DNA of 64,000 nt from Lachnospiraceae bacterium (lineage in GTDB: Bacteria > Bacillota > Clostridia > Lachnospirales > Lachnospiraceae): positions 1 to 64,000 of the forward strand of contig JAFRXH010000088.1 of the NCBI GenBank assembly GCA_017437785.1, written 5' to 3'. Numbering within the stretch: position 1 is the stretch's first letter; each line of letters starts with the position of its first letter. The translations under genes were made by a program, and so were the position numbers. A model generated the notes under the pieces. It searched no databases. It was given only the letters and a program-made list of their open reading frames with translations, and was not told where the DNA came from. Positions 46,395 to 64,000 of the stretch are shown in pieces.

Positions 46395-47528
46395 ATGACT
46401 AAGATCGAAGTTATATCAGGTTTTTTAGGTGCAGGAAAGACGACTCTTATACAGAAGCTTTTAAAAGAAGCCTGGGCAGGAGAGCAGGTAGTGCTCATTG
46501 AAAACGAGTTCGGCGAGATAGGTATAGACGGCGGATTCTTAAAAGAAGCAGGTGTGGAGATAACCGAGATGAATTCGGGCTGTATCTGCTGTTCGCTTGT
46601 GGGAGATTTCGGTACGGCGCTTAAGGATGTTATGAAGAGATTTACTCCCGACCGTATCGTGATCGAGCCTTCGGGTGTGGGCAAGCTCTCGGATGTGGTA
46701 CGTGCCATTCAGACTGCGGGACTGGGCGATGATGTCGTGCTTAATTCCGCGATAGTGGTAGTTGACGCCACTAAGTGCAAACTGTATATCAAGAATTTCG
46801 GTGAGTTCTTCATCAATCAGGTTGAGCATGCCGGAACCATTATATTAAGCCGTACAGGCAATATCAGTGATGACAAGCTCAAGACTGCGCTTGAACTTTT
46901 AAGACAGCATAATGATAAAGCTACCATAATCACCACGCCTTGGGAGCAGATAAGCGGACAGTCCATCAAGGAGACTATGGAGGGCGTTGATCTGCTTGAT
47001 GAGCTCCTTAAGGAAGTAATGGAGCATCATCACGATGACGAAGAGTGTGATGATCCCGAGTGTGAATGCCACCACCATCATCACCACGACGATGATGAAG
47101 ATGAGCATGAGCATGAACATCATCACCATCATCATGACGATGATGACGAAGATGAGCATGAACATCATCACCACCATCACGATGACGACGATGATGAGCA
47201 TGAGCAACATCATCATGATCACGAGCACGGACATCACCATCATCATCATGCAGATGAAGTATTTGGAAGCTGGGGAATGGAGACAGCATCCAAGTATACA
47301 AAGGATGAGATCGAAGGCTTCTTAAGCAAACTGGGCGATGCGCTCACATACGGAATGGTTCTGCGCGCAAAGGGTATGGTGCCCGCATCTGACGGCAGCT
47401 GGATATATTTTGATTATGTGCCCGGCGAGTCAAATGTACGTGCAGGTTCACCCCAGCCTACAGGCAAGTTTTGTGTGATAGGTTCCAAGCTTAACGAGGA
47501 AGAATTAGAGGAGCTGTTTAAGAAATGA
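46395..47528 (+). CDS. CobW/COG0523-type GTPase with His-rich metal-binding loop
   Basis: A 377-aa metallochaperone GTPase. Walker A GFLGAGKT (9-16), ENEFGEIGIDGG switch, metal site CICC (63-66), EPSGVGKLSDV and a C-terminal CobW_C domain (about 300-377: YGMVLRAKGMVPASDGSWIYFDYV). A long insertion of His, Asp and Glu (about 210-290, with runs such as HHHHHHDDD) should bind zinc or nickel. Proteins of this kind deliver zinc under limitation or load metalloenzymes. Its stop overlaps the start of the second CobW-like gene. No Zur-type palindrome was recognised upstream. Confidence 0.92.
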   Translation: MTKIEVISGFLGAGKTTLIQKLLKEAWAGEQVVLIENEFGEIGIDGGFLKEAGVEITEMNSGCICCSLVGDFGTALKDVMKRFTPDRIVIEPSGVGKLSDVVRAIQTAGLGDDVVLNSAIVVVDATKCKLYIKNFGEFFINQVEHAGTIILSRTGNISDDKLKTALELLRQHNDKATIITTPWEQISGQSIKETMEGVDLLDELLKEVMEHHHDDEECDDPECECHHHHHHDDDEDEHEHEHHHHHHDDDDEDEHEHHHHHHDDDDDEHEQHHHDHEHGHHHHHHADEVFGSWGMETASKYTKDEIEGFLSKLGDALTYGMVLRAKGMVPASDGSWIYFDYVPGESNVRAGSPQPTGKFCVIGSKLNEEELEELFKK

Positions 47529-48457
47529 AACCGGTATATATGATCAATGGCTTTCTTGAGAGCGGAAAGACCAGCTTTATCAACTTCACGATCCAGCAGC
47601 CTTATTTCCAGATCAAGGGGCTTACGCTTCTGATACTGTGCGAGGAAGGCGAAGAGGAATATGATGAAAAGATCCTTAAGGCTGCAAAGACCGAAGTAAG
47701 GGTGATAGAGGATGAAGCAGACTTTAATGCAGCTAATCTTATAGCGATTGAAAAGGAGCTTAATCCCGAGCGTATAATCATCGAGTATAACGGCGTGTGG
47801 AATGTAAAGAATATGAAACTGCCTTTCCACTGGAATGTGGAACAGCAGATCACACTTATCGATGCATCTACCTTCCCTACATACTACAGCAACATGAAAT
47901 CCATGGTTGCGGAGATGATAAGGAAATCCGAGCTCATTATCTTTAACCGCTGCGACAATGTTATGGATAATCTGGGAAGCTACAGGAGAAATGTTAAAGC
48001 TGTCAATGCTTCGGCGGATGTCATATTCGAGAACAAAGACGGAGAGATAAACGAGATATTCGAGGAGGATCTTCCTTATGATCTTAAGTCGGATAAGATA
48101 GTCCTTGACGATCAGTCCTACGGCATCTGGTACATGGATGTAATGGACCATATCGAGCGATACAGCGGAAAGACTATAGAGTTTGTTGCTATGGTCATGA
48201 AGCCGAAGGGATTTGAAGCAGATGCCTTTGTACCCGGACGTATGGCAATGACATGCTGTGCCGAGGACATGGCTTTCCTTGGATACGTCTGCAAATATGC
48301 GGGAGCCGATAAGCTTAAGGACCGTGACTGGGTAAAGGTCAGCGGTAAGTTAAAAAAGGAATTCCGAAAGGATTACAAGGGAGAAGGGCCGGTTATCTAT
48401 GCGGAAAAGGTTGAGAGTACGCAGCGTCCGGCTAATGAAGTGATAGGATTTAATTGA
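47525..48457 (+). CDS. CobW-like P-loop protein with C-terminal YcgQ/DUF1980-like domain
   Basis: A 310-aa protein. Residues 1-200 resemble CobW GTPases (GFLESGKT at 9-16) but lack the CxCC metal site, and EPSG is replaced by EYNG. Residues about 215-310 look like the OB-type C-terminal domain of the YcgQ/TIGR03943 family (GRMAMTCCAEDMAFLG, RDWVKVSGKLKKEF, VIYAEKVE), which elsewhere belongs to a zinc-linked membrane complex. This fusion and the 4-nt overlap with the His-rich partner suggest a two-protein metal-handling unit. Confidence 0.75.
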   Translation: MKPVYMINGFLESGKTSFINFTIQQPYFQIKGLTLLILCEEGEEEYDEKILKAAKTEVRVIEDEADFNAANLIAIEKELNPERIIIEYNGVWNVKNMKLPFHWNVEQQITLIDASTFPTYYSNMKSMVAEMIRKSELIIFNRCDNVMDNLGSYRRNVKAVNASADVIFENKDGEINEIFEEDLPYDLKSDKIVLDDQSYGIWYMDVMDHIERYSGKTIEFVAMVMKPKGFEADAFVPGRMAMTCCAEDMAFLGYVCKYAGADKLKDRDWVKVSGKLKKEFRKDYKGEGPVIYAEKVESTQRPANEVIGFN

Positions 48458-52239: not shown

Positions 52240-53187
52240 ATGTTGGTATCTGTTTGTATACCCTGTTACAGATCGGCCAAAACACTTCCTGTAGTGGTAC
52301 AGAACATAAAGGAGGTGTTTGAGACCATGGAGGAGGATTACCAGATAGTCCTGGTAAACGACGGCTCCCCGGATAATACCTTTGGTGAGATACTTAAGCT
52401 GTGCAGGGAAGATGATAAAATAACCGGAGTTAACCTGACAAGGAATTACGGGCAGGCTTCGGCAAAGCTGGCTGCATTAAGACAGGCAAAAGGTGACTAT
52501 GTCGTATTTATGGATGACGACGGACAGCATCCTGCAGAAGGCATACCTCTGCTCATTGGCAGGCTGAAGGAAGGGTATGATGTAGTCTATGCCGATTTCA
52601 AAAAGAAAAAGCACAGCCTGTTTAAGCGCATGACCAGCAGCATGCATAATGCGATAGCGGAATTTATGGGGAACAAACCCAAAGGGATAAAACGTTCCTC
52701 TTTTACGGCGTGGACCAGACCTGTGGTGGACGCGATGATCACATATAAGAGTCCCTTTGTATCCATAGGTTCATTCCTTATGTCGGTGACCACAAAGTAC
52801 GCAAATGTAGAGGTTGAACATAAGGAACGTATAGAAGGCAAATCCGGATACACGCTTAAGAAGCTTTTTAAACTGTGGCTGAACATATTTATCAGTTTTT
52901 CGATGATGCCTCTGCGTATGGCTACATATCTGGGCTTTTTGTTCTCGGGAGTCGGTTTTATCGGGATCATATATTTATTTGTCAGAAAGCTGGTACACCC
53001 CACTAAGGTTGCAGGTTATACCAGTACCATGATCACGGTGCTGTTCATGAGCGGCGTCATAATGCTGATACTGGGAGTTATGGGTGAATATCTGGGAAGG
53101 ATATATATGACGGTGAGCGGCATGCCGCAGTTTTACGTCAGAGAGGTGATCAATGGAAAAGACGATAACGAAAAGCTTCCTGGATGA
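52240..53187 (+). CDS. Family 2 glycosyltransferase, GtrB/ArnC-like
   Basis: A 315-aa enzyme. The GT-A domain has VSVCIPCYRSAKTLP, VNDGSPDNT and the metal-binding FMDDDGQHP (near 88-97). Two C-terminal membrane helices (about 225-255 and 265-290) are typical of GtrB/ArnC/DPM1 proteins that transfer a sugar from UDP to undecaprenyl phosphate. It would supply a lipid-linked sugar for the flippase and the membrane protein upstream. Its last 35 nt overlap the MmgE/PrpD gene. Confidence 0.9.
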   Translation: MLVSVCIPCYRSAKTLPVVVQNIKEVFETMEEDYQIVLVNDGSPDNTFGEILKLCREDDKITGVNLTRNYGQASAKLAALRQAKGDYVVFMDDDGQHPAEGIPLLIGRLKEGYDVVYADFKKKKHSLFKRMTSSMHNAIAEFMGNKPKGIKRSSFTAWTRPVVDAMITYKSPFVSIGSFLMSVTTKYANVEVEHKERIEGKSGYTLKKLFKLWLNIFISFSMMPLRMATYLGFLFSGVGFIGIIYLFVRKLVHPTKVAGYTSTMITVLFMSGVIMLILGVMGEYLGRIYMTVSGMPQFYVREVINGKDDNEKLPG

Positions 53188-54481
53188 AATGCGTAAATTT
53201 GCCGCTCAGCTGCCGGATCAGGAAGTACGCAGACAGGCTAAGCTATGTCTGGCCGATCATCTGGGCTGCGCATTCCTGGGGGCAAAGCTTACGGAAGGGA
53301 TGTTTGATACCGAAGACGGGGATGTCCCTTTGATCGGAAGAAATAAAAAGAGCAGCATGCATACGGCGGCTCTTATAAACGGTATTTCAGCACATTATAT
53401 CGAACTGGATGACGGACAGCGTTTTGCCATGCTGCATCCGGGTGCGCCGGTGATAAGTGCACTGATATCGGCAGCCTCTCATTACGCTATGGATGGAGAG
53501 AGCTTTTTAAGAGGCATCATCACCGGTTATGAGGCAACTATAAGACTGGGAGCAGCGATACAGCCCGGACATAAACTGAAGGGTTTTCATGCCACAGGAA
53601 GCTGCGGAACGATGGGAGCAGCGCTTGGGATAGCAGCCGCTCTTGGGCTTAAAGAAGAGGAATGGGACGCTGTTTTCTGTGCAGCGGCATCTGATGCGTG
53701 CGGACTGCTTCAGCTTATCGACGACGGTTCGGAGCTTAAGCCGTATAATATAGGGCGTGCCGCTGCAGCGGCTGTAAACGCCGTAATAACAGGCAGATCC
53801 GGTCTTAAGGGACCTTCGGATGTGCTGGGCGGTAAGAGAGGTTTCTTTGCAGCAATGTGTGCCGATGTCGATGAGAACAGACTGCTTAACGGTTTTGACG
53901 GCGGCTATGCCATAAAGACGATCTACCGTAAGCCCTATGCGGCCTGCCGGCATACACACGCGGCTATAGAAGGCGTGCTTAAACTGCGTGAGCAGTATTC
54001 ACTTATACCGGATGATACCGAGAGCATAGAGATAAGGACCTATGGTCTGGCTATAAAGGGGCATGAGCATACAGAGATAAAGGGTGCCGGATCGGCTAAG
54101 ATGAGCATGCCTTATTCGGTCGCAGCAGCCCTTAAATACGGCTGTGTGAATTATACGCAATATGATAAGGAATGCCTTGAAGACGAAGAGATCGCCGCTT
54201 TGATGAAACGTGTAGTGATCAAAGAAGATCCTGAACTTTCGGCTTTAGTACCTGATAAGAGGGCAGCCATAGTAAGTATCTTAAGCGGCGGGGATACCTT
54301 AAGCTGCAGGGTGGACTATCCCAGGGGTGAACCGGAAAACCCGGTGAGCGCTTTGGAGATCAAAGATAAATATCTTTCATTGATGGATGCTGCGGGAACG
54401 GAGCGTGAGAGAAGTGAAGAGATATACGGATCGGCAATGAATGTAGAGAGCAGCTTAAGCGGGCTGCTGGCATTGTTATAA
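53153..54481 (+). CDS. MmgE/PrpD-family dehydratase
   Basis: A 442-aa member of the 2-methylcitrate dehydratase / cis-aconitate decarboxylase superfamily. It shows LADHLGCAFLGAK, SAHYIELDDGQRFAMLHPGAPV, GYEATIRLGAAIQPGHKLKG and FHATGSCGTMGAALG, then KPYAACRHTHAAIEG, all typical of the all-helical domain. Known members act on tricarboxylic or hydroxy acids, usually by dehydration. It starts 35 nt inside the glycosyltransferase gene with AGAGAGGTG upstream, tying organic-acid enzymes to glycan genes. No prpB or prpC partner is present. Confidence 0.9.
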   Translation: MEKTITKSFLDEMRKFAAQLPDQEVRRQAKLCLADHLGCAFLGAKLTEGMFDTEDGDVPLIGRNKKSSMHTAALINGISAHYIELDDGQRFAMLHPGAPVISALISAASHYAMDGESFLRGIITGYEATIRLGAAIQPGHKLKGFHATGSCGTMGAALGIAAALGLKEEEWDAVFCAAASDACGLLQLIDDGSELKPYNIGRAAAAAVNAVITGRSGLKGPSDVLGGKRGFFAAMCADVDENRLLNGFDGGYAIKTIYRKPYAACRHTHAAIEGVLKLREQYSLIPDDTESIEIRTYGLAIKGHEHTEIKGAGSAKMSMPYSVAAALKYGCVNYTQYDKECLEDEEIAALMKRVVIKEDPELSALVPDKRAAIVSILSGGDTLSCRVDYPRGEPENPVSALEIKDKYLSLMDAAGTERERSEEIYGSAMNVESSLSGLLALL

Positions 54482-54491
54482 AGGAGATATG

Positions 54492-55385
54492 ATGGAAAAG
54501 ACAAGAGCTTTCTTAAAGAGCATAGGACTTCCGGAGGGAGACGATTATTCGCTTAAGACCTCCGATAAGCGTTTTGCGGACGGAGGGCAGTTCCGTTTTG
54601 AGGTGCCGGGCATACAGGGACCAAAGGTCATGCAGGCTCTTCTTGAGGCACTTGAAGGCTATAAGATACCTATTCACCGGGTTACGCAGACAAAGGGCAT
54701 ATGGACTCTGCTGGATGAAGAGATCAGTGAGATGGTAAGGCTGGCTTCGGAATATCATCTCCAGCTGATACTGGCTATAGGACCCAGGGCCACTACCGAT
54801 ACCAGTGCATCCGTACATACCCCGGAGGGACAGCGTATGGGATACCGCCTGCGCGGACAGGAGCAGATAGTACGTGCCATCGAGGATGTCAAACGTGCTG
54901 CAGGCCTGGGATGCAGGGGCTTTCTGGTATACGATGAAGGCTGCTTATGGATATTAAATGAGATGCGTAAGGCCGGGGAACTTCCGGCTGACTGCCACTT
55001 TAAAGTATCGGCGCATACAGGACACGGAAATCCCTGCTCTGCTAAGCTTTTGGAAAGCATAGGTGCCAATTCGATCAATCCCGTAAGGGATATACAGCTG
55101 CAGATGCTTGCGGCGATGAGACAGGCTATAGATATCCCGATAGACATACATACTGAGAATCCTGAATCATCGGGAGGGTTCATCCGCCATTATGAGGTAC
55201 CGGAGATGATAAGAGTGGCTGCACCGCTTTATCTTAAGACAGGCGGTTCCGTGGCCAAGACCCACAGCTGGGATTCCAGCGTAGATGATGCAAAGAAGAG
55301 GGCCAAGCAGATAGTGCTGGTCAAGAGAGTTATAGATGAGTATTATCCGGATGCGGTGGTATCGGCATCGGAATGGAAGAGATGA
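54492..55385 (+). CDS. TIM-barrel protein, U32-peptidase/aldolase-like
   Basis: A 297-aa protein predicted as a beta/alpha barrel. Conserved-looking loops: FRFEVPGIQGPKVM, QLILAIGPRATTDTSASVH, FLVYDEGCLWIL, FKVSAHTGHGNPCSAKLLES, IDIHTENPESSGGF and YLKTGGSVAKTHSW. The pattern recalls U32-peptidase-like and aldolase barrels, but I cannot place it firmly. ATG 54492 is five bases after AAGGAG; ATG 54489 is too close. It is embedded in the acid-pathway operon, so a lyase, isomerase or aldolase role is more likely than proteolysis. Confidence 0.65.
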   Translation: MEKTRAFLKSIGLPEGDDYSLKTSDKRFADGGQFRFEVPGIQGPKVMQALLEALEGYKIPIHRVTQTKGIWTLLDEEISEMVRLASEYHLQLILAIGPRATTDTSASVHTPEGQRMGYRLRGQEQIVRAIEDVKRAAGLGCRGFLVYDEGCLWILNEMRKAGELPADCHFKVSAHTGHGNPCSAKLLESIGANSINPVRDIQLQMLAAMRQAIDIPIDIHTENPESSGGFIRHYEVPEMIRVAAPLYLKTGGSVAKTHSWDSSVDDAKKRAKQIVLVKRVIDEYYPDAVVSASEWKR

Positions 55386-55389
55386 TAAG

Positions 55390-56631
55390 ATGGTAGCGAT
55401 CATACTTGGCGGGGTTGTTCCCCACATTGAGTTGATAGAGGACCTTAAGAAGCGGGGGTATACCACACTTCTTCTGGATTATCTTGAAAATCCGCCGGCT
55501 AAGGCATATGCGGATGAATTTTTGCGTGTCAGTACTCTTGACAGAGAGGCGGTACTTGAGATAGCCATGCAAAGGAAGGCGGATCTCATAATAACCATTT
55601 GTGTAGATCATGCGAATGTAACGATGTGTTATGTTGCTGAAAAGCTTGGACTGCCGCTTCCTTACAGTTATGATACAGCAATAAAGACTACCGATAAGGG
55701 TATAATGAAACAGTGCATGTTCGACGGAGGGATACCGACATCGGAATTTAAGCTTTTGTACGAAAACGATCCGCTTCCGGAAGATCTTGAGTTTCCTGTT
55801 GTGGTAAAACCGGTAGATAATAACGGATCAAAGGGTGTCAAGCGTGCGAATGACCGCACCGAACTTGAAAAATATGTGAAAGCGGCTTTTGCTTTTTCGC
55901 GTAAAGGCCAGGTTATCGTAGAGGAGTTCAGCGACGGTATAGAGATCCAGGTTGACTGCTTTGCCAATGAAGGAAAAGCGCATGTGATCATGACTAGAAA
56001 AAAACTCGAGATGCCCCGAAAAGAAGGGCTTGCACTGCAATCGATAGGATCCGTGATACCCGCACCGCTTAAGAAAGAACATATAGATGAGTTCAGATCC
56101 ATAGCCGATAAGATGGTCAGTGTTTACGACTTTGAGCATACACCTTTCTTCTTTCAGGCCAAGCTGAAGGGCGATAAGATAAAGGTTCTGGAGGTAAGTC
56201 CGAGGATAGGCGGAGGGCTTAGTTATAAGATGCTCAAGAGCCAGATGGATTTTGATGTGGTAGACACGATCATAGATTCCTATTTCGGAAATGTGGATTC
56301 CATAAATATCAGACCTAAAGAGCAGTATATGCTTACGGATATCGTGTATGCGGGGGGCGGGGTTTTTGATCATGTCGAAGGTGCCGCGCAGATGATCGAA
56401 GAAGGCGTGATAGACAGTTTTGATCTGATGATAGATAAGGGCAAGGATATGGGAAGCGATATGGACAGCCGTAACAGGGTTGGTGCTTATCTGATAACAG
56501 CGGCAACAAAGAATGATATCCTTAAGAAAGCCCAAACAGCATTTGAGAATATCGCTGTGATCGATAATGAAGGACATGTGATGAGCAGAGGAGATATCTG
56601 CTATAAGGGAGAAGAAAATGAGGCATCATAA
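55390..56631 (+). CDS. ATP-grasp domain ligase
   Basis: A 413-aa enzyme; ATG 55390 lies four bases after the preceding stop. The N-terminal preATP-grasp domain (VAIILGG near 2-8) and the ATP-grasp core (FPVVVKPVDNNGSKGVKRAN, VIVEEFSDGIEIQVDC, VLEVSPRIGGGLSYKMLKS) match carboxylate-amine/thiol ligases. It should activate a carboxylate as acyl-phosphate and join it to an amine or similar nucleophile, possibly amidating the acid made by its neighbours. The substrate is unknown. Its 3' end overlaps the next gene by 14 nt. Confidence 0.87.
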   Translation: MVAIILGGVVPHIELIEDLKKRGYTTLLLDYLENPPAKAYADEFLRVSTLDREAVLEIAMQRKADLIITICVDHANVTMCYVAEKLGLPLPYSYDTAIKTTDKGIMKQCMFDGGIPTSEFKLLYENDPLPEDLEFPVVVKPVDNNGSKGVKRANDRTELEKYVKAAFAFSRKGQVIVEEFSDGIEIQVDCFANEGKAHVIMTRKKLEMPRKEGLALQSIGSVIPAPLKKEHIDEFRSIADKMVSVYDFEHTPFFFQAKLKGDKIKVLEVSPRIGGGLSYKMLKSQMDFDVVDTIIDSYFGNVDSINIRPKEQYMLTDIVYAGGGVFDHVEGAAQMIEEGVIDSFDLMIDKGKDMGSDMDSRNRVGAYLITAATKNDILKKAQTAFENIAVIDNEGHVMSRGDICYKGEENEAS

Positions 56632-57751
56632 TTATCAGCCTGATTCAAAGTTTGTCGGCCTGCCGATCGATTTTGACAAACATACGGATATGAGTATCCT
56701 GCGGTATTGTCTGGGAGCGACTATGTATATGCCCGGGACAAAAGATTTTCTGGATGCTATTCTTACAAAAAAATATCCGGGACTCACTTCATTGGTACTG
56801 TGTTTTGAGGATGCATGCAGGGAAGAGGATGTGCCTGCGGCAGAGAATAATGTGCTGCATATACTTGATGAGTTAAATGCAGCCATAGATAAAGGAACTA
56901 TCGATGCAGGAGATATCCCGCTTCTGGTGGTACGGGTACGTAATATCGAACAGTTTAAAGCATTTTCGGCAAGGCTGTCATTATCACAGCTTGGATTGCT
57001 CAGTGCATTTAATTTCCCTAAGTTTAACAAGGAGAATGGTGAAGCTTACTACGCGCATTTAAGGGAACTTAACGATAAAAGCGGAGAGAAAGTCTACGGT
57101 ATGCCTATCCTTGAAAGCAGGGAGATGGCATATATAGAAACGCGTATTGACGAGCTGATGGGAGTGAGACAGATCCTGGACAGATACAGGGATCTGGTTC
57201 TTAATGTGCGCGTGGGAGGAACAGACTGGTCATCGGTTTTTGGCGTACGCCGCGGTATCAATTACACTATATACGATATACTGCCGGTGGCGGATTGCCT
57301 TAAGGATGTACTCAATGTGTTTTCGAGGAATAATGATTACAGTGTATCCGGTCCGGTTTGGGAATACTTCAGAGTCAATAAGACAATGAAGTTTTCGGAA
57401 ATGCCGCAGAGTATCAACGCATCCATATTCAAGCATGAGACCATGATCAACGATGCTGTGGACGGATTGCTGCGCGAGCTGCTTTTAGACCGTGCAAACG
57501 GCTTTATCGGGAAGACGATAATTCATCCCTCACATATACCGTTTGTAAACGGGATGCTGGCAGTAACGAAAGAAGTGTATGATGATGCGATGCAGATACT
57601 TAATGCCGACGGTGGAGTTGTAAAAAGCTCGTCTGCCAATAAAATGAATGAGATAGGGCCGCACAGGAGCTGGGCGGAAAAGATAAAAGCCAGAGCACAG
57701 GTATACGGGATCATAAAGGATGAATCCTGCTATACATCTCTGTTCGTATAG
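56618..57751 (+). CDS. HpcH/HpaI aldolase / CitE-like C-C bond lyase
   Basis: A 377-aa TIM-barrel lyase related to the citrate-lyase beta family. It shows YMPGTKDFLDAI, LVLCFEDACREEDVPAAE (acidic metal site), LLVVRVRN, GMPILESREM and the C-terminal GFIGKTIIHPSHIPFVNGM, which corresponds to the GKxxIHPxQ motif of CitE and malyl-CoA lyases. The length (normally 290-320) and the broad pattern fit the C-C bond lyase subgroup seen next to ATP-grasp genes in tellurium-resistance-type clusters. It likely forms or cleaves a hydroxy-acid skeleton. The gene overlaps the ATP-grasp gene by 14 nt. Confidence 0.82.
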   Translation: MRHHNYQPDSKFVGLPIDFDKHTDMSILRYCLGATMYMPGTKDFLDAILTKKYPGLTSLVLCFEDACREEDVPAAENNVLHILDELNAAIDKGTIDAGDIPLLVVRVRNIEQFKAFSARLSLSQLGLLSAFNFPKFNKENGEAYYAHLRELNDKSGEKVYGMPILESREMAYIETRIDELMGVRQILDRYRDLVLNVRVGGTDWSSVFGVRRGINYTIYDILPVADCLKDVLNVFSRNNDYSVSGPVWEYFRVNKTMKFSEMPQSINASIFKHETMINDAVDGLLRELLLDRANGFIGKTIIHPSHIPFVNGMLAVTKEVYDDAMQILNADGGVVKSSSANKMNEIGPHRSWAEKIKARAQVYGIIKDESCYTSLFV

Positions 57752-57759
57752 GAGATAGT

Positions 57760-58728
57760 ATGAAAACCCTACTCCTTACAAACCATTATGAAGGTGCGGC
57801 TCTGGATATACTTAAGAATGCCGTAAACGGGGACTTTAACCTGTGTGTACTGGATACAGCCGACAGGGAATGTCTGTTAAAGGCCGTGCCCGGAGCGGAT
57901 TATCTTCTGGTGAGCGGAAGGCTTCAGATAGATGATGAAGTACTCACAAAAGCGTCAAAACTTAAGATGATACAGCGCACCGGAGTCGGGCTTGATAATA
58001 TGGATCTTGATGCCGTTAAGAGGCATGGTATCCCCTTATATGTAAATGCCGGAGTAAATGCAGGAAGTGTCGCGGAATATGCCGTGATGCTCATGCTTTC
58101 GTGCCTGCGTCGCAGCTATTTTGTTAATACGCAGATGCGCAAGGGTATATGGAAAAAGCAGGCTACGGGACTTACAACATATGAACTCAGCGGGAAGACC
58201 GTAGGCCTTGTGGGAGCCGGAAAGATAGGGCGTTATGTTGCGGGATTATTAAAAGCATTTGGCGTAAAGCTTTTATATACCGATAAGATAAGGCTTGACG
58301 AAGCTGTCGAAAAAGAATCGGGTCTGGAATATGTTATGTTTGAAGAACTGCTCAGGCGTTCTGATATAGTGAGCCTGCACTGCAGTTTTGATAAAAGTGC
58401 CGGGGCTCTCATGGGTGAAAAAGAATTTGCACTTATGAAAGATGGAGCGGTATTCATAAACACCGCAAGGGGAGGGCTTGTAGATGAACAGGCACTGATA
58501 AAGGCGCTGGATGATGGTAAACTTTCCTGTTGCGGACTTGATGTGTTCTGTGAGGAGCCGCTTTCACCTGAACATCCTTTGCTTAAAAGAGAGGATGTGC
58601 TGCTCTCGCCCCATATAGCAGGCGTCAGCTTTGATGCTTTCAGCAGGATGATGCAGGCAGGTGTTGATAATATCCGTAAATTCAATGCCGGACGTATTGA
58701 AGAGATAGAGAAAGACCGTGTGGTATAG
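57760..58728 (+). CDS. D-2-hydroxyacid dehydrogenase (SerA-like)
   Basis: A 322-aa NAD-dependent enzyme. Rossmann motif VGLVGAGKIGRYVA (near 147-160), catalytic Arg in NTARGGLVDEQAL, Glu in LDVFCEEPLS and His in LLSPHIAG. It would interconvert a 2-oxo acid and a 2-hydroxy acid. Length and absence of an ACT domain distinguish it from regulated SerA. It starts eight bases after the lyase gene and ends two bases before the dehydratase beta gene, so its substrate is presumably an intermediate of this pathway. Confidence 0.92.
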   Translation: MKTLLLTNHYEGAALDILKNAVNGDFNLCVLDTADRECLLKAVPGADYLLVSGRLQIDDEVLTKASKLKMIQRTGVGLDNMDLDAVKRHGIPLYVNAGVNAGSVAEYAVMLMLSCLRRSYFVNTQMRKGIWKKQATGLTTYELSGKTVGLVGAGKIGRYVAGLLKAFGVKLLYTDKIRLDEAVEKESGLEYVMFEELLRRSDIVSLHCSFDKSAGALMGEKEFALMKDGAVFINTARGGLVDEQALIKALDDGKLSCCGLDVFCEEPLSPEHPLLKREDVLLSPHIAGVSFDAFSRMMQAGVDNIRKFNAGRIEEIEKDRVV

Positions 58729-58730
58729 AG

Positions 58731-59240
58731 ATGGAAAAGAAACTGGTATTTCCCATAGATATAAAAACAGCCGATGAACTGCGCATAAGGGACCGCATTC
58801 TTATAAGCGGGAGGATCTTTTGTGGCAGGGATGCCGTGCTGCCTAAGATCGCTGCGATGATAAATGACGGCAGCATAAAGGACAGCGGGATCGATCTGGA
58901 AGGCGGACTGATCTTTCATACGGCGGTAAGCCCTGCAGGAGTCGGACCTACTTCAAGCAATAAGGTTGAGATAGAAGGGACGATGGAGATACTTTCCCAT
59001 GCGGGCATACGCATGCATCTTGGAAAGGGTGCACTCAGGAAAGAGACTGCGGAGATATTAAAAAGGGAACATGCTGTATATGCGGTGCTTCCGCCGGTTA
59101 CGGCGCTTCTTACTTCAAGAGTGATCAGTAAAAGGACTGTAGCATTCGCAGAGCTGGGTATGGAAGCTTTATATGAACTTGAAGTACATGATTATCCCGC
59201 AGTAGTTGCGATCGCGGGCGGAGAATCGATCTATGAATAA
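58731..59240 (+). CDS. Class I fumarase/tartrate dehydratase beta-type subunit
   Basis: A 169-aa protein matching the C-terminal (beta) domain of class I fumarases and L-tartrate dehydratase. It shows DRILISGRIFCGRDAVLPKI, then VSPAGVGPTSSNKVE, HLGKGALRKET and FAELGMEALYELEVHDYPAV. The family motif GRDAAH reads GRDAVL, losing a His. It is paired with the alpha gene that overlaps its end; the order beta-then-alpha is the reverse of the usual arrangement. Confidence 0.88.
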   Translation: MEKKLVFPIDIKTADELRIRDRILISGRIFCGRDAVLPKIAAMINDGSIKDSGIDLEGGLIFHTAVSPAGVGPTSSNKVEIEGTMEILSHAGIRMHLGKGALRKETAEILKREHAVYAVLPPVTALLTSRVISKRTVAFAELGMEALYELEVHDYPAVVAIAGGESIYE

Positions 59241-60093
59241 AGATGAGTTTGATCTGGTTGCGGATAAAACTGCCGGGGCCCTTATTAGGGCATCGTCGTG
59301 TTTCCGTACAGATAAGTATGATGCTTATAAAGCAGCTATAGAAACAGATGACGGCTTATCCTGTTGGGCGATGGAGCAGATCGTTGAGAATGCACATATC
59401 GCGGAGAAGGATTCTTCGCCTTTATGTGATGATACAGGTATACCCCATGTGATACTCGAGGTGGGAAAAAACAGACAGATAAGCGGCATGACTCTGGAGG
59501 CTGTACAGGAAGGTATAAGACGCGGGCTTCGCAGGCTGCCCGGCAGACCGATGGCTGTTAAGGGCGATGATAAGCAGCGCATCGACCAGTCGCTTGGTTT
59601 ATTTGAAGACTCAGAGGAAGTGCTTCCCGCACCTTTTACTATACGGTATTCGGATGATGAGGAACGGTTAAGGCTGCATATATTGATGCTTGGCGGAGGT
59701 CCCGAGATCAGAGCCAGGACTTACCGTGTATTTCACAGGCACAGTATCGATATAGTGTTATCCGAGATAACAGGCTGGGCTGTGGAGTCTGTATCACAGC
59801 TTGGCTGCAGTCCCTGTACGCTGGCTGTGGGCATAGGCAGATCGCATTATGAGGCTTCCAACCTTATGCTTCAGGCTATGGCTGAGGGCAGATATGACAG
59901 GCAGTCTGAATATGAGAAGTTTATCACCGGCGAGGTGAATAAAAGCAATACCGGAGCATTGGGATTGGGAGGAAAGACGTCTGTACTGGCTACATTTATG
60001 AAGATCGGGCCGCAGCGTGCCAGCGGCGTCCGTATAGTATGCATGCGCCCCTGCTGCTGTTTTGAACCCCGTGTATACAGTGTAGATCTATAG
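59233..60093 (+). CDS. Class I fumarase/tartrate dehydratase alpha-type subunit
   Basis: A 286-aa iron-sulfur subunit. Start ATG 59233 lies within the last eight bases of the beta gene. It shows SPLCDDTGIPHVILEVG (cluster Cys), LGGGPEIRARTYRVF (where KGGGSEN is usual), LGCSPCTLAVGIG (cluster Cys), LGLGGKTSVLATFM and RPCCCFEPR (third Cys). Three Cys for a 4Fe-4S cluster are kept, but the substrate loops differ from fumarase, so it probably hydrates or dehydrates a different, perhaps larger acid. Confidence 0.87.
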   Translation: MNKDEFDLVADKTAGALIRASSCFRTDKYDAYKAAIETDDGLSCWAMEQIVENAHIAEKDSSPLCDDTGIPHVILEVGKNRQISGMTLEAVQEGIRRGLRRLPGRPMAVKGDDKQRIDQSLGLFEDSEEVLPAPFTIRYSDDEERLRLHILMLGGGPEIRARTYRVFHRHSIDIVLSEITGWAVESVSQLGCSPCTLAVGIGRSHYEASNLMLQAMAEGRYDRQSEYEKFITGEVNKSNTGALGLGGKTSVLATFMKIGPQRASGVRIVCMRPCCCFEPRVYSVDL

Positions 60094-60097
60094 TAAT

Positions 60098-61474
60098 ATG
60101 GATACTTTGAAAAAGATATTAAAATACATAGCCGTACCGGTTCTGGTGCTTGTACTGTTTATGACAGGAGAGATATATCTTGGCAGGCTGGTGACACCCG
60201 TTACCGATGCGGACTATTTCAATATGGATGTGGCTGCGATAGAGGCGGCGGGGCAGGATGTGGATCTTATGTTTCTTGGTTCATCCAGGATCTACAGGAG
60301 TTTTGTACCCGAAGAATTTGAAAAGAATCCGGCTTTTGATCTGTGCCTGGTATGCGGTTCGTCTTCCCAGAAGATGGATGCTTCATATTATATGCTTAAG
60401 GATATGTACTCACGGGTCCATCCCCAAACCGTGGTACTGGGGGTACAGTGGAATTCCTTTGATACGGAGGGGGCAAACTCCGTTAAGATGGAAAATATAC
60501 TTAAGGTATACGACAGGATAAGTGCCGCCGGTAAGGCCGGATATATATTCAGAAGTGTGGGGACGGATGTATTTCCCGAACTGTTTTATCTGTACCGTTA
60601 CAGGTCGCGTTTTTCAAATGAACGTATAGAAGAAAACAACAGGGACAAAGAAGAATTAAGAACACATGGGTATACTCCGGATACGAGTCAGGATTATTAC
60701 TATCTTTCAAAAGGGTTTAATTATTCCAATGTAAATGTTGAGAACGGTAATATGGTCATTGAGACCAAAGGAGTAAACAGGTACGAACCTGAGCGCTTTG
60801 ACAGTGATCTGGTAAAGTATCTTGACAGGATAACTGCGTTCTGTAAAGAGAAGGGGATCAGACTGATACTGGTATCTCCGCCAAACGCTATGATGACGCT
60901 GTATTATGTTGAGAATATACAGGGCGCCATGGACTATTTTGCTGATTACGCTTTACGTAACGGATTGACTTATCATAATCTCAATCTGTTAAAGGGAAGA
61001 GAATCCCTGCTTAAAGATGAAATATACTATGACGGCTGGCATTTTTCGGGAGAAGGAGCATATATTATCAGTGATCTGTATGCTCAGATACTTGAAAAGG
61101 AACTGGCAGGAGAAGATATAAGTGATATGTTTTATCAGGATCTGGAAGCTTTAAAGCAGGAAGTCGATCGTGTAGTAGCTGTTTCTGCCGTGGCGGAAGT
61201 GTCGGATGATGAGATCCATATCAGTATTCACAGCCTTCATAATGATGGTGATGTTCCGTTGTATAAGCTTGAGATATCGGAAGATGGCGGAAAGAGTTAT
61301 GAGTGTGTGTATGACTGGAGCGAAGATGAGCTGCTTAAGATCAAGATCCCCGCGAAAGAGGCTGTAATGTATAAGATAAGTGCCGCACTTTCCGAAGATG
61401 ATGAGTATCCGGCGTGGCAGGTATATGATATCGGCAGCTGGTTAGATCCGGAAAAAGGAGAGGAAATATATTGA
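60098..61474 (+). CDS. Membrane-anchored SGNH-type protein (DltD/AlgX-like)
   Basis: A 458-aa protein with one N-terminal membrane anchor (about 8-27). The extracytoplasmic SGNH hydrolase fold has its nucleophile motif FLGSSRIYR (Ser 62/63) and a DGWHFS block (Asp312, His315) giving a Ser-Asp-His triad. A small C-terminal beta domain (about 365-458) follows. DltD and AlgX/PatB-type proteins with this layout act with MBOAT partners in surface O-acylation or its editing. It starts four bases after the alpha subunit gene and overlaps the ligase gene by 4 nt. Confidence 0.8.
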   Translation: MDTLKKILKYIAVPVLVLVLFMTGEIYLGRLVTPVTDADYFNMDVAAIEAAGQDVDLMFLGSSRIYRSFVPEEFEKNPAFDLCLVCGSSSQKMDASYYMLKDMYSRVHPQTVVLGVQWNSFDTEGANSVKMENILKVYDRISAAGKAGYIFRSVGTDVFPELFYLYRYRSRFSNERIEENNRDKEELRTHGYTPDTSQDYYYLSKGFNYSNVNVENGNMVIETKGVNRYEPERFDSDLVKYLDRITAFCKEKGIRLILVSPPNAMMTLYYVENIQGAMDYFADYALRNGLTYHNLNLLKGRESLLKDEIYYDGWHFSGEGAYIISDLYAQILEKELAGEDISDMFYQDLEALKQEVDRVVAVSAVAEVSDDEIHISIHSLHNDGDVPLYKLEISEDGGKSYECVYDWSEDELLKIKIPAKEAVMYKISAALSEDDEYPAWQVYDIGSWLDPEKGEEIY

Positions 61475-62877
61475 TCTGGGATCTTCAGAAATTTGCTGAA
61501 AAAACAGCGCTTATTGAAGGCGATGATAATATTTCTTACGCTGAGCTGTATGAGCGCACTCAGGTTCTGATAAAGGGGCTTCGCAAGCGCTCACTGGCTT
61601 TCATCCTTTGCAGCAATACCGCTGAATGTGTCATTGGATATACGGCTTTCTTGAATTACGGGATAGTTCCTCTGATGCTTGATGCTGCGCTTAATACGCA
61701 GACAGTAGGATCTATGGTCGCATGTTATGCTCCGGCTTATATCTGGGTGCCTCAGGAACTCAAAGAAGGATTTGAAGCTTATTTACCTATAAGGTCAATG
61801 GGCGGCTACGTTCTTCTGGAAGCCGATGCTTGTGATGATGTTGAGCTTAATGATGAACTGGCGCTTTTAATATCAACATCAGGTTCCACCGGAAGTCCCA
61901 AGCTGATACGTTTAAGCTATGACAACATCATATCAAATACAAAGGCAATCATCGAATATCTTAAGATAGACGGCAATGAACGCGCGATCGCGTCGCTGCC
62001 GCTCAATTATGTATACGGACTTTCTGTCCTTAACACACATCTCTATGCTGGCGGCAGCCTGGTGCTGACAAAGGATAACTGCTATTCAAAGAAGTTCTGG
62101 GACTGTTTTGAACAAAACAGCTGCACATCCTTTGCAGGCATTCCTTTTATGTATGAGATGATGGATAAGCTGGGGTTTACAAAAAAGACAGTTGCCACGT
62201 TAAGGACCATGACCCAGGCGGGAGGCAAGCTTTCTCCTTTGCTGCATGAAAGATTTGCGGAGTATGCGGCTGCAAAGGGGATCAGCTTTGTGGTGATGTA
62301 CGGCGCATCCGAGGCTACGGCCCGTATGGGATATCTTCCCGCAGATATGGCTGTTGCCAAGAAGGGCAGCATGGGTATCGCAATACCCGGAGGACGTTTT
62401 GAGATACTGGGTGAAAATGATGAAGTACTGACAGGGGCTGATGAAAAAGGCGAGCTGATATACTATGGCGACAATGTAAGCCTTGGATATGCACAGTGCA
62501 GAGAAGACTTAAAGCTTGGCAACGTGAATCACGGCAGGCTTCAGACCGGAGATATGGCATACAGGGATCAGGACGGATTCTATTATATTTACGGACGTAA
62601 AAAGCGTTTTATAAAGATCACCGGTAAACGTACCAATCTGGCCGAAGTGGAGATGATGATAAAGGAACACTTTGATATAGTTGATGCTGCCTGTGCCGGT
62701 GAGGATGATTCACTGGATATATATATCACGGATGAAAAGCTTAAAGAGGATATCTGTTCGTTTGTATATGAAAAGTTTAAGATAAACCGTCATCTTTTCC
62801 ATGTGTATGTAATAGATGATATACCCAAGAATGCGGCGGGAAAGGTGCAGTATGCGGCGCTAAAGCCAAAGGAGTGA
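61471..62877 (+). CDS. AMP-dependent acyl ligase (DltA/acyl-ACP synthetase-like)
   Basis: A 468-aa adenylating enzyme. P-loop ISTSGSTGSPK (near 133-143), YGASEATARMG (A5), QTGDMAYRDQDGFYYIYGR (A7/A8), then KRFIKITGKRTN, and the C-terminal catalytic Lys in PKNAAGKVQ (near 460). It should activate a carboxylic acid and load it on the carrier protein at 63593. It is not clearly DltA: no D-Ala-specific feature can be confirmed, and the neighbours suggest an organic acid. It is slightly shorter than standard 500-aa enzymes. Confidence 0.9.
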   Translation: MIWDLQKFAEKTALIEGDDNISYAELYERTQVLIKGLRKRSLAFILCSNTAECVIGYTAFLNYGIVPLMLDAALNTQTVGSMVACYAPAYIWVPQELKEGFEAYLPIRSMGGYVLLEADACDDVELNDELALLISTSGSTGSPKLIRLSYDNIISNTKAIIEYLKIDGNERAIASLPLNYVYGLSVLNTHLYAGGSLVLTKDNCYSKKFWDCFEQNSCTSFAGIPFMYEMMDKLGFTKKTVATLRTMTQAGGKLSPLLHERFAEYAAAKGISFVVMYGASEATARMGYLPADMAVAKKGSMGIAIPGGRFEILGENDEVLTGADEKGELIYYGDNVSLGYAQCREDLKLGNVNHGRLQTGDMAYRDQDGFYYIYGRKKRFIKITGKRTNLAEVEMMIKEHFDIVDAACAGEDDSLDIYITDEKLKEDICSFVYEKFKINRHLFHVYVIDDIPKNAAGKVQYAALKPKE

Positions 62878-62880
62878 GTA

Positions 62881-63537
62881 ATGGAAGAGAAGAATTACAA
62901 ACAGCATCCTGATGCAACTGTAAAGCAGAGCCGTATAGGTGAAAAGTCCAGTATCGATAAAGACAGTGTTATCTTATGCAGCGAGCTGGGAGCTTTTGTC
63001 GATATAGAAAAAAGAAACCTTATAAGGGATTCGGTGATAGGTGATATGAGTTATACCGGTGCCGATACCAGTATACTATGGGCAGAGATAGGCAAGTACT
63101 GCTGTATATCAAGATTGGTGGATATAGGCGGGAATGAGCATGCCTACAAGCACGTGACGATGATGCCCGAATACCGCATGAAGAACAAGCTGGAGGGTAA
63201 ACTGTTAAAACATCCGGATGAGAATAAGATTAAGATTGGAAATGACGTATGGATAGGGGCGGGAGCCATGATACTCAGAAAGCCCGGCCTTTCCATAGGA
63301 GACGGTGCGGTGATAGGTGCAGGCTCAGTGGTTACCAGATCGGTGCCACCCTATGCGATAGTAGCAGGAACACCGGCAAGGATCATTTCCTACAGGTTTT
63401 TAAACGAAGTGATAAACTTTATGCTCAAACTTAAATGGTGGGACTGGAGTTTTGAGAAGGTTAAAGAGAACATGGACCTGCTCATGAACGAGCCGGATAT
63501 CGAAGAGCTTAAGAAATTAATGCTGGATAAAATGTGA
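62881..63537 (+). CDS. Left-handed beta-helix acyltransferase (CatB/Vat-like)
   Basis: A 218-aa hexapeptide-repeat O-acyltransferase. LbH turns include DTSILWAEIGKYCCISRLVD, then KIGNDVWIGAGAMIL and IGDGAVIGAGSVVTRSVPPY, ending in the usual IVAGTPARIISYRF. The likely catalytic His is in GNEHAYKH. Such enzymes move acetyl from CoA, though some use acyl carriers. It lies three bases after the ligase and before the carrier protein, so it could modify a sugar or the acid itself. Confidence 0.9.
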   Translation: MEEKNYKQHPDATVKQSRIGEKSSIDKDSVILCSELGAFVDIEKRNLIRDSVIGDMSYTGADTSILWAEIGKYCCISRLVDIGGNEHAYKHVTMMPEYRMKNKLEGKLLKHPDENKIKIGNDVWIGAGAMILRKPGLSIGDGAVIGAGSVVTRSVPPYAIVAGTPARIISYRFLNEVINFMLKLKWWDWSFEKVKENMDLLMNEPDIEELKKLMLDKM

Positions 63538-63592
63538 TTGAAGTTTAAAATCTATTATGTTAACATAACAAGGTTAAAAGGAGGAAAAAATA

Positions 63593-63817
63593 ATGGAAGA
63601 ACTTTTACGTATCATGTCAGGAATAAGAGATGACATCGATTTTACAAAGGAAAAAAAGCTCATTGATGATGAACTGTTGGATTCATTCGACATTATTTCC
63701 ATCGTGAGCGAAGTAAACGAGCATTTTGGCATAGAGATCAATGTTGATGATCTGCTTCCGGAGAATTTCAACAGTGCCGAAGCGCTTTATGAGCTAATAA
63801 AGAAGATGCAGGGATAA
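63593..63817 (+). CDS. Acyl carrier protein (DltC-like)
   Basis: A 74-aa carrier protein with AGGAGG before ATG 63593. The 4'-phosphopantetheine site is Ser31 in LLDSFDIISIV; the rest is the acidic four-helix ACP pattern (NEHFGIEINVDDLLPENFNS). The DSFD form resembles dedicated carriers such as DltC more than fatty-acid ACP (usually DSLD). It should receive the acyl group from the ligase and present it to the MBOAT protein that follows. Confidence 0.92.
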   Translation: MEELLRIMSGIRDDIDFTKEKKLIDDELLDSFDIISIVSEVNEHFGIEINVDDLLPENFNSAEALYELIKKMQG

Positions 63818-63823
63818 TATGAA

Positions 63824-64000
63824 ATGAATCTTGTATCTCTTAGTTGCCTTTGCTTTGCAACTATTACGGTATTATTATACTTTGTTATGCCACAGAAGAT
63901 CAGATGGCTGGTACTGTTGGCGGCAAACGTTTTCTTCTACATTACATACGGGCCGGCATATATCGTATTTCTTATACTGTGTGCGGCAATAAGCTGGATC
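63824..64000 (+). CDS. MBOAT O-acyltransferase, N-terminal part (cut by window edge)
   Basis: An open frame of 59 codons from ATG 63824, running off the window. It shows two hydrophobic segments separated by YFVMPQKIRWLVLLAANVFF, the common N-terminal pattern of DltB/AlgI-type membrane-bound O-acyltransferases (short first helix, Pro-basic turn, then LLxxNxxFY). Directly after an ACP gene, with ligase and SGNH genes upstream, MBOAT is the most likely identity, but the catalytic His lies beyond the edge. Confidence 0.7.
   Translation, partial: MNLVSLSCLCFATITVLLYFVMPQKIRWLVLLAANVFFYITYGPAYIVFLILCAAISWI

What the first reader, a model, noticed from the sequence alone, without database searches (positions are those of the whole stretch)
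60098..64000. A dlt-like acyl-activation and transfer module not obviously for D-alanine
SGNH protein (DltD-like), AMP ligase (DltA-like), carrier protein (DltC-like) and the start of an MBOAT protein (DltB-like) are consecutive, with an extra LbH acyltransferase between ligase and carrier. Established: DltA-D activate and transfer D-Ala to teichoic acids by this logic. Seen: the order is D-A-LbH-C-B rather than dltABCD, and the genes are coupled to organic-acid enzymes upstream. Inference: the system attaches a different acyl group to a surface glycan.
Basis: partly seen in the sequence, partly recalled or inferred. Interest (0 to 1): 0.9.

Follow-up and report, generated by a model that had tools for sequence, protein, structure and literature searches.

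The report
Carrier-fed acyl export with built-in shuttle
A bacterium carries a set of genes, five of them found together again in four related genomes, that resembles the machine that puts D-alanine on cell walls but whose activating enzyme lacks that machine's amino-acid-binding aspartate, so it likely attaches a different acid to a cell-surface polymer, predicted to travel on a tyrosine built into the membrane enzyme itself.

Summary
In detail: SGNH protein, AMP ligase, LbH acyltransferase, carrier and MBOAT lie in that order; the MBOAT gene runs past the window edge to 65404, and the run goes on to 68216 with a second SGNH gene (anchor-like start in another frame) and a second ligase. It is not Dlt: no DltA over cut-off in this genome and no strong DltA match in 35 genus genomes; neither ligase has DltA's amino-group aspartate or its cysteine. 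The MBOAT ends in FMYADF, the acyl-shuttle motif that true Dlt systems put on separate DltX. So it joins two known designs: carrier-fed like Dlt, shuttle fused like PatA/AlgI; 31 of 33 related MBOATs with a carrier nearby share this. Ligase, LbH, carrier, MBOAT and SGNH recur together in four other genomes of the genus, in the same order in two and rearranged in two. The latter two show no organic-acid genes, and two further genomes have an aspartate-bearing ligase instead, so the organic-acid coupling is not obligatory. Acid and acceptor are unknown. I read it as a new variant of the Dlt/MBOAT-SGNH kind: an acyl-export unit with exchangeable ligase and tailoring genes.

The parts
60098..61474 (+). 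SGNH1, DltD-like; predicted N-terminal helix, SGNH domain, C-terminal beta domain (about 361-444)
   Evidence: Ser63/Asp312/His315
61471..62877 (+). AMP ligase 1; Val at the DltA Asp197 column, Ala at the Cys268 column; C-terminal GK lysine present
62881..63537 (+). LbH hexapeptide acyltransferase, nearest NCBIfam TIGR03308 and Vat/CatB (below cut-offs)
   Evidence: beside ligase 1 in L252, L253, L256, L257 too
63593..63817 (+). 74-aa carrier protein, DSF with Ser31
63824..64000 (+). start of MBOAT; gene continues to contig position 65404 (526 aa), His362, C-terminal FMYADF with Tyr523
53153..60093 (+). organic-acid genes of the same run (MmgE/PrpD, unnamed TIM-barrel protein, ATP-grasp, CitE-like lyase, hydroxyacid dehydrogenase, fumarase beta and alpha); linked here but not part of the conserved core
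46395..48457 (+). cobW pair just upstream of the run; the same pair precedes the unit in L255-L258

Best explanation
The locus encodes a carrier protein, an acyl-AMP ligase without the amino-acid-binding aspartate of DltA, a hexapeptide acyltransferase, an MBOAT that ends in the FxYxxF motif and an SGNH protein, which together would load a likely non-amino carboxylic acid onto the carrier and likely move it, by way of the MBOAT's own tyrosine and the SGNH serine, onto a cell-envelope polymer. Shown: gene content and order, motifs, the missing Asp/Cys, recurrence of the five-gene core in the genus, clustering of carrier-linked MBOATs on a tree. Inferred: (1) ligase 1 forms the acyl-AMP and charges Ser31 of the holo-carrier; (2) the LbH enzyme acylates or otherwise finishes the carrier-bound group; (3) His362 passes the acyl group to Tyr523; (4) Tyr523 hands it to Ser63 of SGNH1; (5) SGNH1 places it on a polymer outside. 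Ligase 2 is likely a second acyl source. The organic-acid genes more likely serve the polysaccharide locus in which the unit sits than the ligase.
For: MBOAT/DltB match. C-terminal FxYxx[FY] in 31 of 33 MBOATs with a carrier gene within 5 kb on the same strand, of 87 loci examined; the other two are one cut by a contig end and one variant. Control: a true dlt operon (L194) has a motif-less DltB and a 53-aa DltX ending FVYTQF. Only the MBOAT ends in the motif among ORFs of 25 aa or more at 60001-69000; the ending occurs in 5 of 10961 short ORFs of 80 other loci. The acyl-Tyr relay is shown for PatA and described for Dlt in PMC12148441 (passages). Pocket residues: with their roles from PMC8972799 (one passage). 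Core present in the window's genome and G659, G661, G666, G671. Another ligase, with the Asp, beside related carrier, MBOAT and SGNH in G657 and G654. Carrier label clustered on the MBOAT tree: 6 changes against a shuffled mean of 30.
Against: No substrate, acceptor or activity is known. Loss of one Asp does not prove a non-amino substrate, and ligase 1 is only about 20% identical to the Asp-type ligases it was aligned with. Most ligase-1 relatives (26 of 27 loci) have no MBOAT in the stretch read. One carrier beside two ligases is unexplained. SGNH2 seems broken. The fused motif is as common in MBOATs without a carrier (51 of 54), so it does not itself point to a carrier. The tree is a quick one, with support 88 for the main carrier clade.
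Confidence: 0.6

Rival explanations
1. The upstream organic-acid enzymes make the very acid (a C4-type hydroxy or dicarboxylic acid) that ligase 1 activates, so the whole run is one pathway.
For: Both sets are in one run with gaps of -50 to 60 bases and occur together in L252 and L253 and, with another ligase type, in L100. Genome G081 has both a ligase-1/carrier/MBOAT locus and an organic-acid cluster, but on different contigs.
Against: L256 and L257 keep the core without those genes in the stretch read; 0 of 27 ligase-1 relatives' loci have prpD, tim, citE, dh or fumarase; four organic-acid loci of about 20 kb (L096, L098, L099, L224) have no MBOAT or stand-alone carrier; the L100 ligase has the amino-acid Asp.
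Confidence: 0.15
2. Ligase, LbH and carrier make an acylated sugar precursor in the cytoplasm, while the MBOAT and SGNH separately O-acetylate from acetyl-CoA as in PatAB.
For: The nearest LbH models are acetyltransferases of small molecules and sugars by name; MBOATs with a fused motif are acyl-CoA users in PMC12148441; ligase-1 relatives occur in loci without an MBOAT.
Against: Carrier, MBOAT and SGNH stay together where the ligase is of another type (L254, L255) and where glycan genes are absent (L256); carrier-linked MBOATs cluster on the tree.
Confidence: 0.15
3. It is a rearranged ordinary D-alanylation system.
For: Same protein families; DltB match 1.2e-21.
Against: No ligase over the DltA cut-off in the genome, no DltA match at 1e-100 in 35 of 35 genus genomes; Asp and Cys columns differ in both ligases; no separate DltX found.
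Confidence: 0.04

Closest known systems
Dlt pathway (DltA-B-C-D-X)
   Same: Ligase, carrier, MBOAT and SGNH protein; MBOAT matches DltB, SGNH1 model matches DltD
   Different: Ligases lack the Asp197/Cys268 equivalents; shuttle motif fused to the MBOAT, no DltX found; LbH gene; different order
MBOAT-SGNH O-acetylation pairs (PatAB, AlgIJFX, WssHIFG)
   Same: MBOAT with fused C-terminal FxYxxF and a separate SGNH protein
   Different: These lack a carrier and use acyl-CoA (PMC12148441, passages); here a carrier and a ligase adjoin the MBOAT
Ligase-1 relatives in loci with LuxE/LuxC and carrier genes (same bacterial family)
   Same: Same ligase subfamily (30-50% identity), beside a carrier in those printed that show one
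   Different: No MBOAT in 26 of 27 loci; LuxE/LuxC checked by Pfam in L031 only

Membership tests
Dlt D-alanylation system | DltA (TIGR01734) ligase | tested here: not met
   0 over cut-off in own genome; module ligases score 129.8 and 73.9 against 559.85 bits; 0 of 35 genus genomes at E 1e-100
Dlt D-alanylation system | Asp197 and Cys268 (B. cereus DltA) in the D-Ala pocket | tested here: not met
   Ligase 1 Val/Ala, ligase 2 Ser/Gly; residue roles
Dlt D-alanylation system | Carrier protein with phosphopantetheine Ser | tested here: met
   PP-binding 6e-06, DSF Ser31; but the DltC model gives only 26.2 of 68 bits
Dlt D-alanylation system | Separate DltX microprotein with FxYxxF | tested here: not met
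   Only the MBOAT ends in the motif among ORFs of 25 aa or more at 60001-69000; control L194 has DltX
Dlt D-alanylation system | D-Ala on teichoic acid | not testable with these tools
   Needs chemistry
MBOAT-SGNH acylation pairs (PatAB/AlgI type) | MBOAT with catalytic His and fused FxYxxF | tested here: met
   His362, Tyr523
MBOAT-SGNH acylation pairs (PatAB/AlgI type) | Partner SGNH protein with Ser-Asp-His | tested here: met
   Ser63, Asp312, His315; fold
MBOAT-SGNH acylation pairs (PatAB/AlgI type) | No carrier protein in the pathway | tested here: not met
   Carrier gene 6 bases upstream of the MBOAT gene
MBOAT-SGNH acylation pairs (PatAB/AlgI type) | Acyl-CoA as donor | not testable with these tools
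   Needs enzymology

The most novel reading that the evidence does not exclude
These modules are a plug-in acyl assembly-and-export platform of Clostridia: a fixed carrier, an MBOAT with its own shuttle tyrosine and an SGNH protein, to which exchangeable ligases and carrier-stage tailoring enzymes (LbH acyltransferase, formyltransferase, GNAT, Asp/Glu racemase, PLP decarboxylase) are attached, so that each strain writes a different acyl or aminoacyl ester on its surface, as a one-module NRPS for the cell wall would.
Probability: 0.45. Interest if true: 0.75.

Novelty: new variant of a known kind. Interest (0 to 1): 0.6.

Why it matters
PMC12148441 (passages) sets carrier-fed Dlt (separate DltX) against carrier-less MBOAT-SGNH pairs (fused shuttle). 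A carrier-fed MBOAT with a fused shuttle would join the two and would show that cell-surface acylation in Clostridia is not limited to acetyl and D-Ala. Related units with different ligase types within one genus give ready pairs for asking what a strain's surface ester is and what it does.

Tried and rejected
Rejected: ordinary Dlt. Rejected as obligatory: organic-acid coupling. The unnamed 298-aa protein at 54489 gave no Pfam, NCBIfam or PDB sequence hit; its model (pLDDT 84.1) matched only assorted TIM barrels at TM about 0.5, so its reaction stays open. Of its 13 relatives' loci at 49-57% identity, 7 show fumarase genes, and some of those printed show Ldh2-type dehydrogenase and malic enzyme by eye. 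I did not derive the acid from ligase 1: the best PDB rows (oxalate-CoA ligase 2.9e-29, MenE, malonyl-CoA synthetase) only place it among carboxylic-acid ligases. Own-genome teichoic check: no Glyphos_transf, two Sulfatase-family proteins; this does not settle the acceptor. Paper searches for a carrier-fed MBOAT with a fused shuttle listed none that I could recognise from titles and abstract starts in the held library, which lacks most subscription papers; one search had 0 hits. I saw passages of PMC12148441, PMC9558356 and PMC8972799 only, the others as listings. The extra-enzyme tally used reference proteins picked from carrier loci, so its zero in carrier-less loci is biased.

Full report
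What is there. The window is the first 64,000 bases of a 100,002-base contig of a 3.2 Mb genome. On the + strand an operon-like run goes from 48454 to 68216, with gaps of -50 to 60 bases. It holds a 777-aa protein that looks like a membrane protein (no Pfam), a flippase (PF01943) and a GT2; MmgE/PrpD, an unnamed 298-aa protein, ATP-grasp, CitE-like lyase, hydroxyacid dehydrogenase and fumarase beta and alpha; then SGNH1, ligase 1, LbH, carrier and MBOAT, and beyond the window SGNH2 and ligase 2.

Ligase pocket. In B. cereus DltA, Asp197, Thr297 and Val301 bind the D-alanyl amino group and Cys268 selects the enantiomer (PMC8972799, one passage). In an alignment with a DltA found in a relative (L194, D204 and the C of FCGE), ligase 1 has Val and Ala, and ligase 2 has Ser and Gly (one search printed the position before the Cys, so I read one column on). 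Of 32 ligases near MBOATs (ORFs over 350 aa, the window's two included), 16 have the Asp and 16 do not; of the 26 other ligase-1 relatives none has it.

Not Dlt. The genome has no DltA over the family cut-off, 0 of 35 genus genomes (own included) has a match at 1e-100 (23 of the 35 are at least 90% complete and at most 5% contaminated), and 1 of 40 family genomes has one. That relative's operon serves as control: dltA, dltB of 385 aa without the motif, dltC, dltD, and a 53-aa DltX ending FVYTQF.

The shuttle motif. PMC12148441 (passages) says that Dlt uses a carrier plus separate DltX with FxYxxF, that PatA acetylates the Tyr of its own C-terminal FxYxxF, and that other MBOAT-SGNH pathways lack a carrier. 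The window's MBOAT ends in FMYADF and is the only ORF of 25 aa or more ending so at 60001-69000; in 80 other loci 5 of 10,961 ORFs of 25-80 aa do. Of these, 33 have a carrier gene within 5 kb on the same strand. Of the 33, 31 carry the terminal motif, one is cut by the contig end (L132) and one has a variant (L139). Of the 54 without a carrier, 51 have the motif in the last 40 residues. So the fused motif is general in these MBOATs, and the carrier is what is added. On a tree of 94 MBOATs (quick method, midpoint root, DltB on a long branch) the carrier label needs 6 changes against a shuffled mean of 30, with 38 of 39 carrier rows in one 46-row group of support 88.

Conservation in the genus. 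SGNH1 relatives at 1e-20 occur in 8 of 35 genomes, own included; stretches of all seven others were read. L252 has the window's order SGNH1, ligase 1 (80%), LbH (92%), carrier (93%), MBOAT (83%), then ligase 2 (81%), with prpD, tim, ATP-grasp, citE and fumarase upstream. L253 has the same order of the five (ligase 1 70, LbH 73, carrier 93, MBOAT 74%) without ligase 2, and with fumarase alpha downstream. L256 and L257 have another order, carrier, MBOAT, SGNH1, ligase 1, LbH (ligase 59/66%, LbH 68/74%), directly after the same cobW pair, and no organic-acid or glycan genes in the stretch read; L256 is flanked by nitroreductase/pyrB/pyrI, while L257 ends with the contig 1.4 kb past LbH. L258 is cut after SGNH1. 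L254 and L255 keep MBOAT, SGNH1 and carrier (58/52, 43/43, 73/72%) but have a ligase with the Asp; in L254 a formyltransferase (PF00551) lies between SGNH1 and ligase. Five genomes thus hold the full five-gene core, three with and two without organic-acid genes. The run or unit follows the cobW pair in the window and in L255-L258; the pyrB/pyrI/nitroreductase side is seen in the window, L252 and L256; L254 showed neither flank.

Extra enzymes. Besides LbH (5 loci; a 32% LbH-like gene 3.8 kb off in L254 is not counted), carrier-linked modules have, within 5.5 kb of the MBOAT, an Asp/Glu racemase (4 loci), an Orn/DAP-type decarboxylase (5), GNAT (2) or a formyltransferase (1). Families were checked by Pfam in 9 of these 12 and by blastp for L109, L118 and L123. 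That is 17 of the 40 carrier loci (33 and the 7 genus loci) and 0 of the 54 without a carrier, with the bias that the reference proteins came from carrier loci. In five genomes LbH travels with ligase 1, in two of them without sugar genes in the stretch read. This is why I place LbH at the carrier-bound group rather than on a sugar; that step is inference.

Organic-acid genes. The 298-aa protein is in 7 of 250 family genomes, own included, the other six at 77-81%. Counting the 73% one and the two genus loci gives ten loci: four have MBOAT and carrier (window, L100, L252, L253), four of about 20 kb have no MBOAT and no stand-alone carrier (L096, L098, L099, L224; the carrier label in L099 lies on an 855-aa protein), and two are on short contigs (L095, L097). 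The L100 ligase has the Asp. Genome G081 has the organic-acid cluster (L096) and a ligase-1/carrier/MBOAT locus (L037) on different contigs. So both cassettes share surface-polymer loci without depending on each other.

Ligase-1 family. 25 of 250 family genomes have a match at 1e-40. Of the 27 loci read, only L037 has ligase-carrier-MBOAT (some stretches are as short as 4 kb). Of six that I printed, the other five hold LuxE/LuxC-like genes by eye, confirmed by Pfam in L031. L159 is a second ligase-1, carrier, MBOAT, SGNH locus, from a named record. On the ligase tree the five genus sequences form one clade (100/99), and L037 and L159 fall apart from them.

Verdict. A real module, a new variant of the Dlt/MBOAT-SGNH kind; mechanism likely by homology, acid and acceptor unknown.

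Noticed in passing
54489-55385: Unnamed 298-aa predicted TIM-barrel protein with 5114 database relatives, the 120 listed all 80% or more identical; source name 'peptidase', no Pfam; more distant relatives often sit with fumarase genes.
   Followed up: partly
53153-60093: Organic-acid cluster (PrpD, TIM protein, CitE-like, dehydrogenase, fumarase alpha/beta, ATP-grasp) recurring beside polysaccharide-type genes in other genomes; product unknown.
   Followed up: partly
L002 5404-5470 (contig 65404-65470): Second SGNH gene: the anchor-like N-terminal stretch lies in a different frame from the rest.
   Followed up: partly
L109, L111, L114: SGNH partners of these modules have Cys (GDC) where the block I Ser is expected, next to Asp-type ligases, with an Asp/Glu racemase in L109 and L114.
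   Followed up: no
L031, L032, L033, L035, L039: Ligase-1 relatives sit with LuxE- and LuxC-like genes, several also with a carrier gene, in what look like polysaccharide loci; an undescribed acyl-reduction cassette?
   Followed up: partly
48454-50787: 777-aa membrane-like protein without Pfam contains tandem SHPEG-type repeats in its middle.
   Followed up: no
46395-48457: The cobW pair is followed by different inserts in related genomes, a variable surface-modification site.
   Followed up: partly
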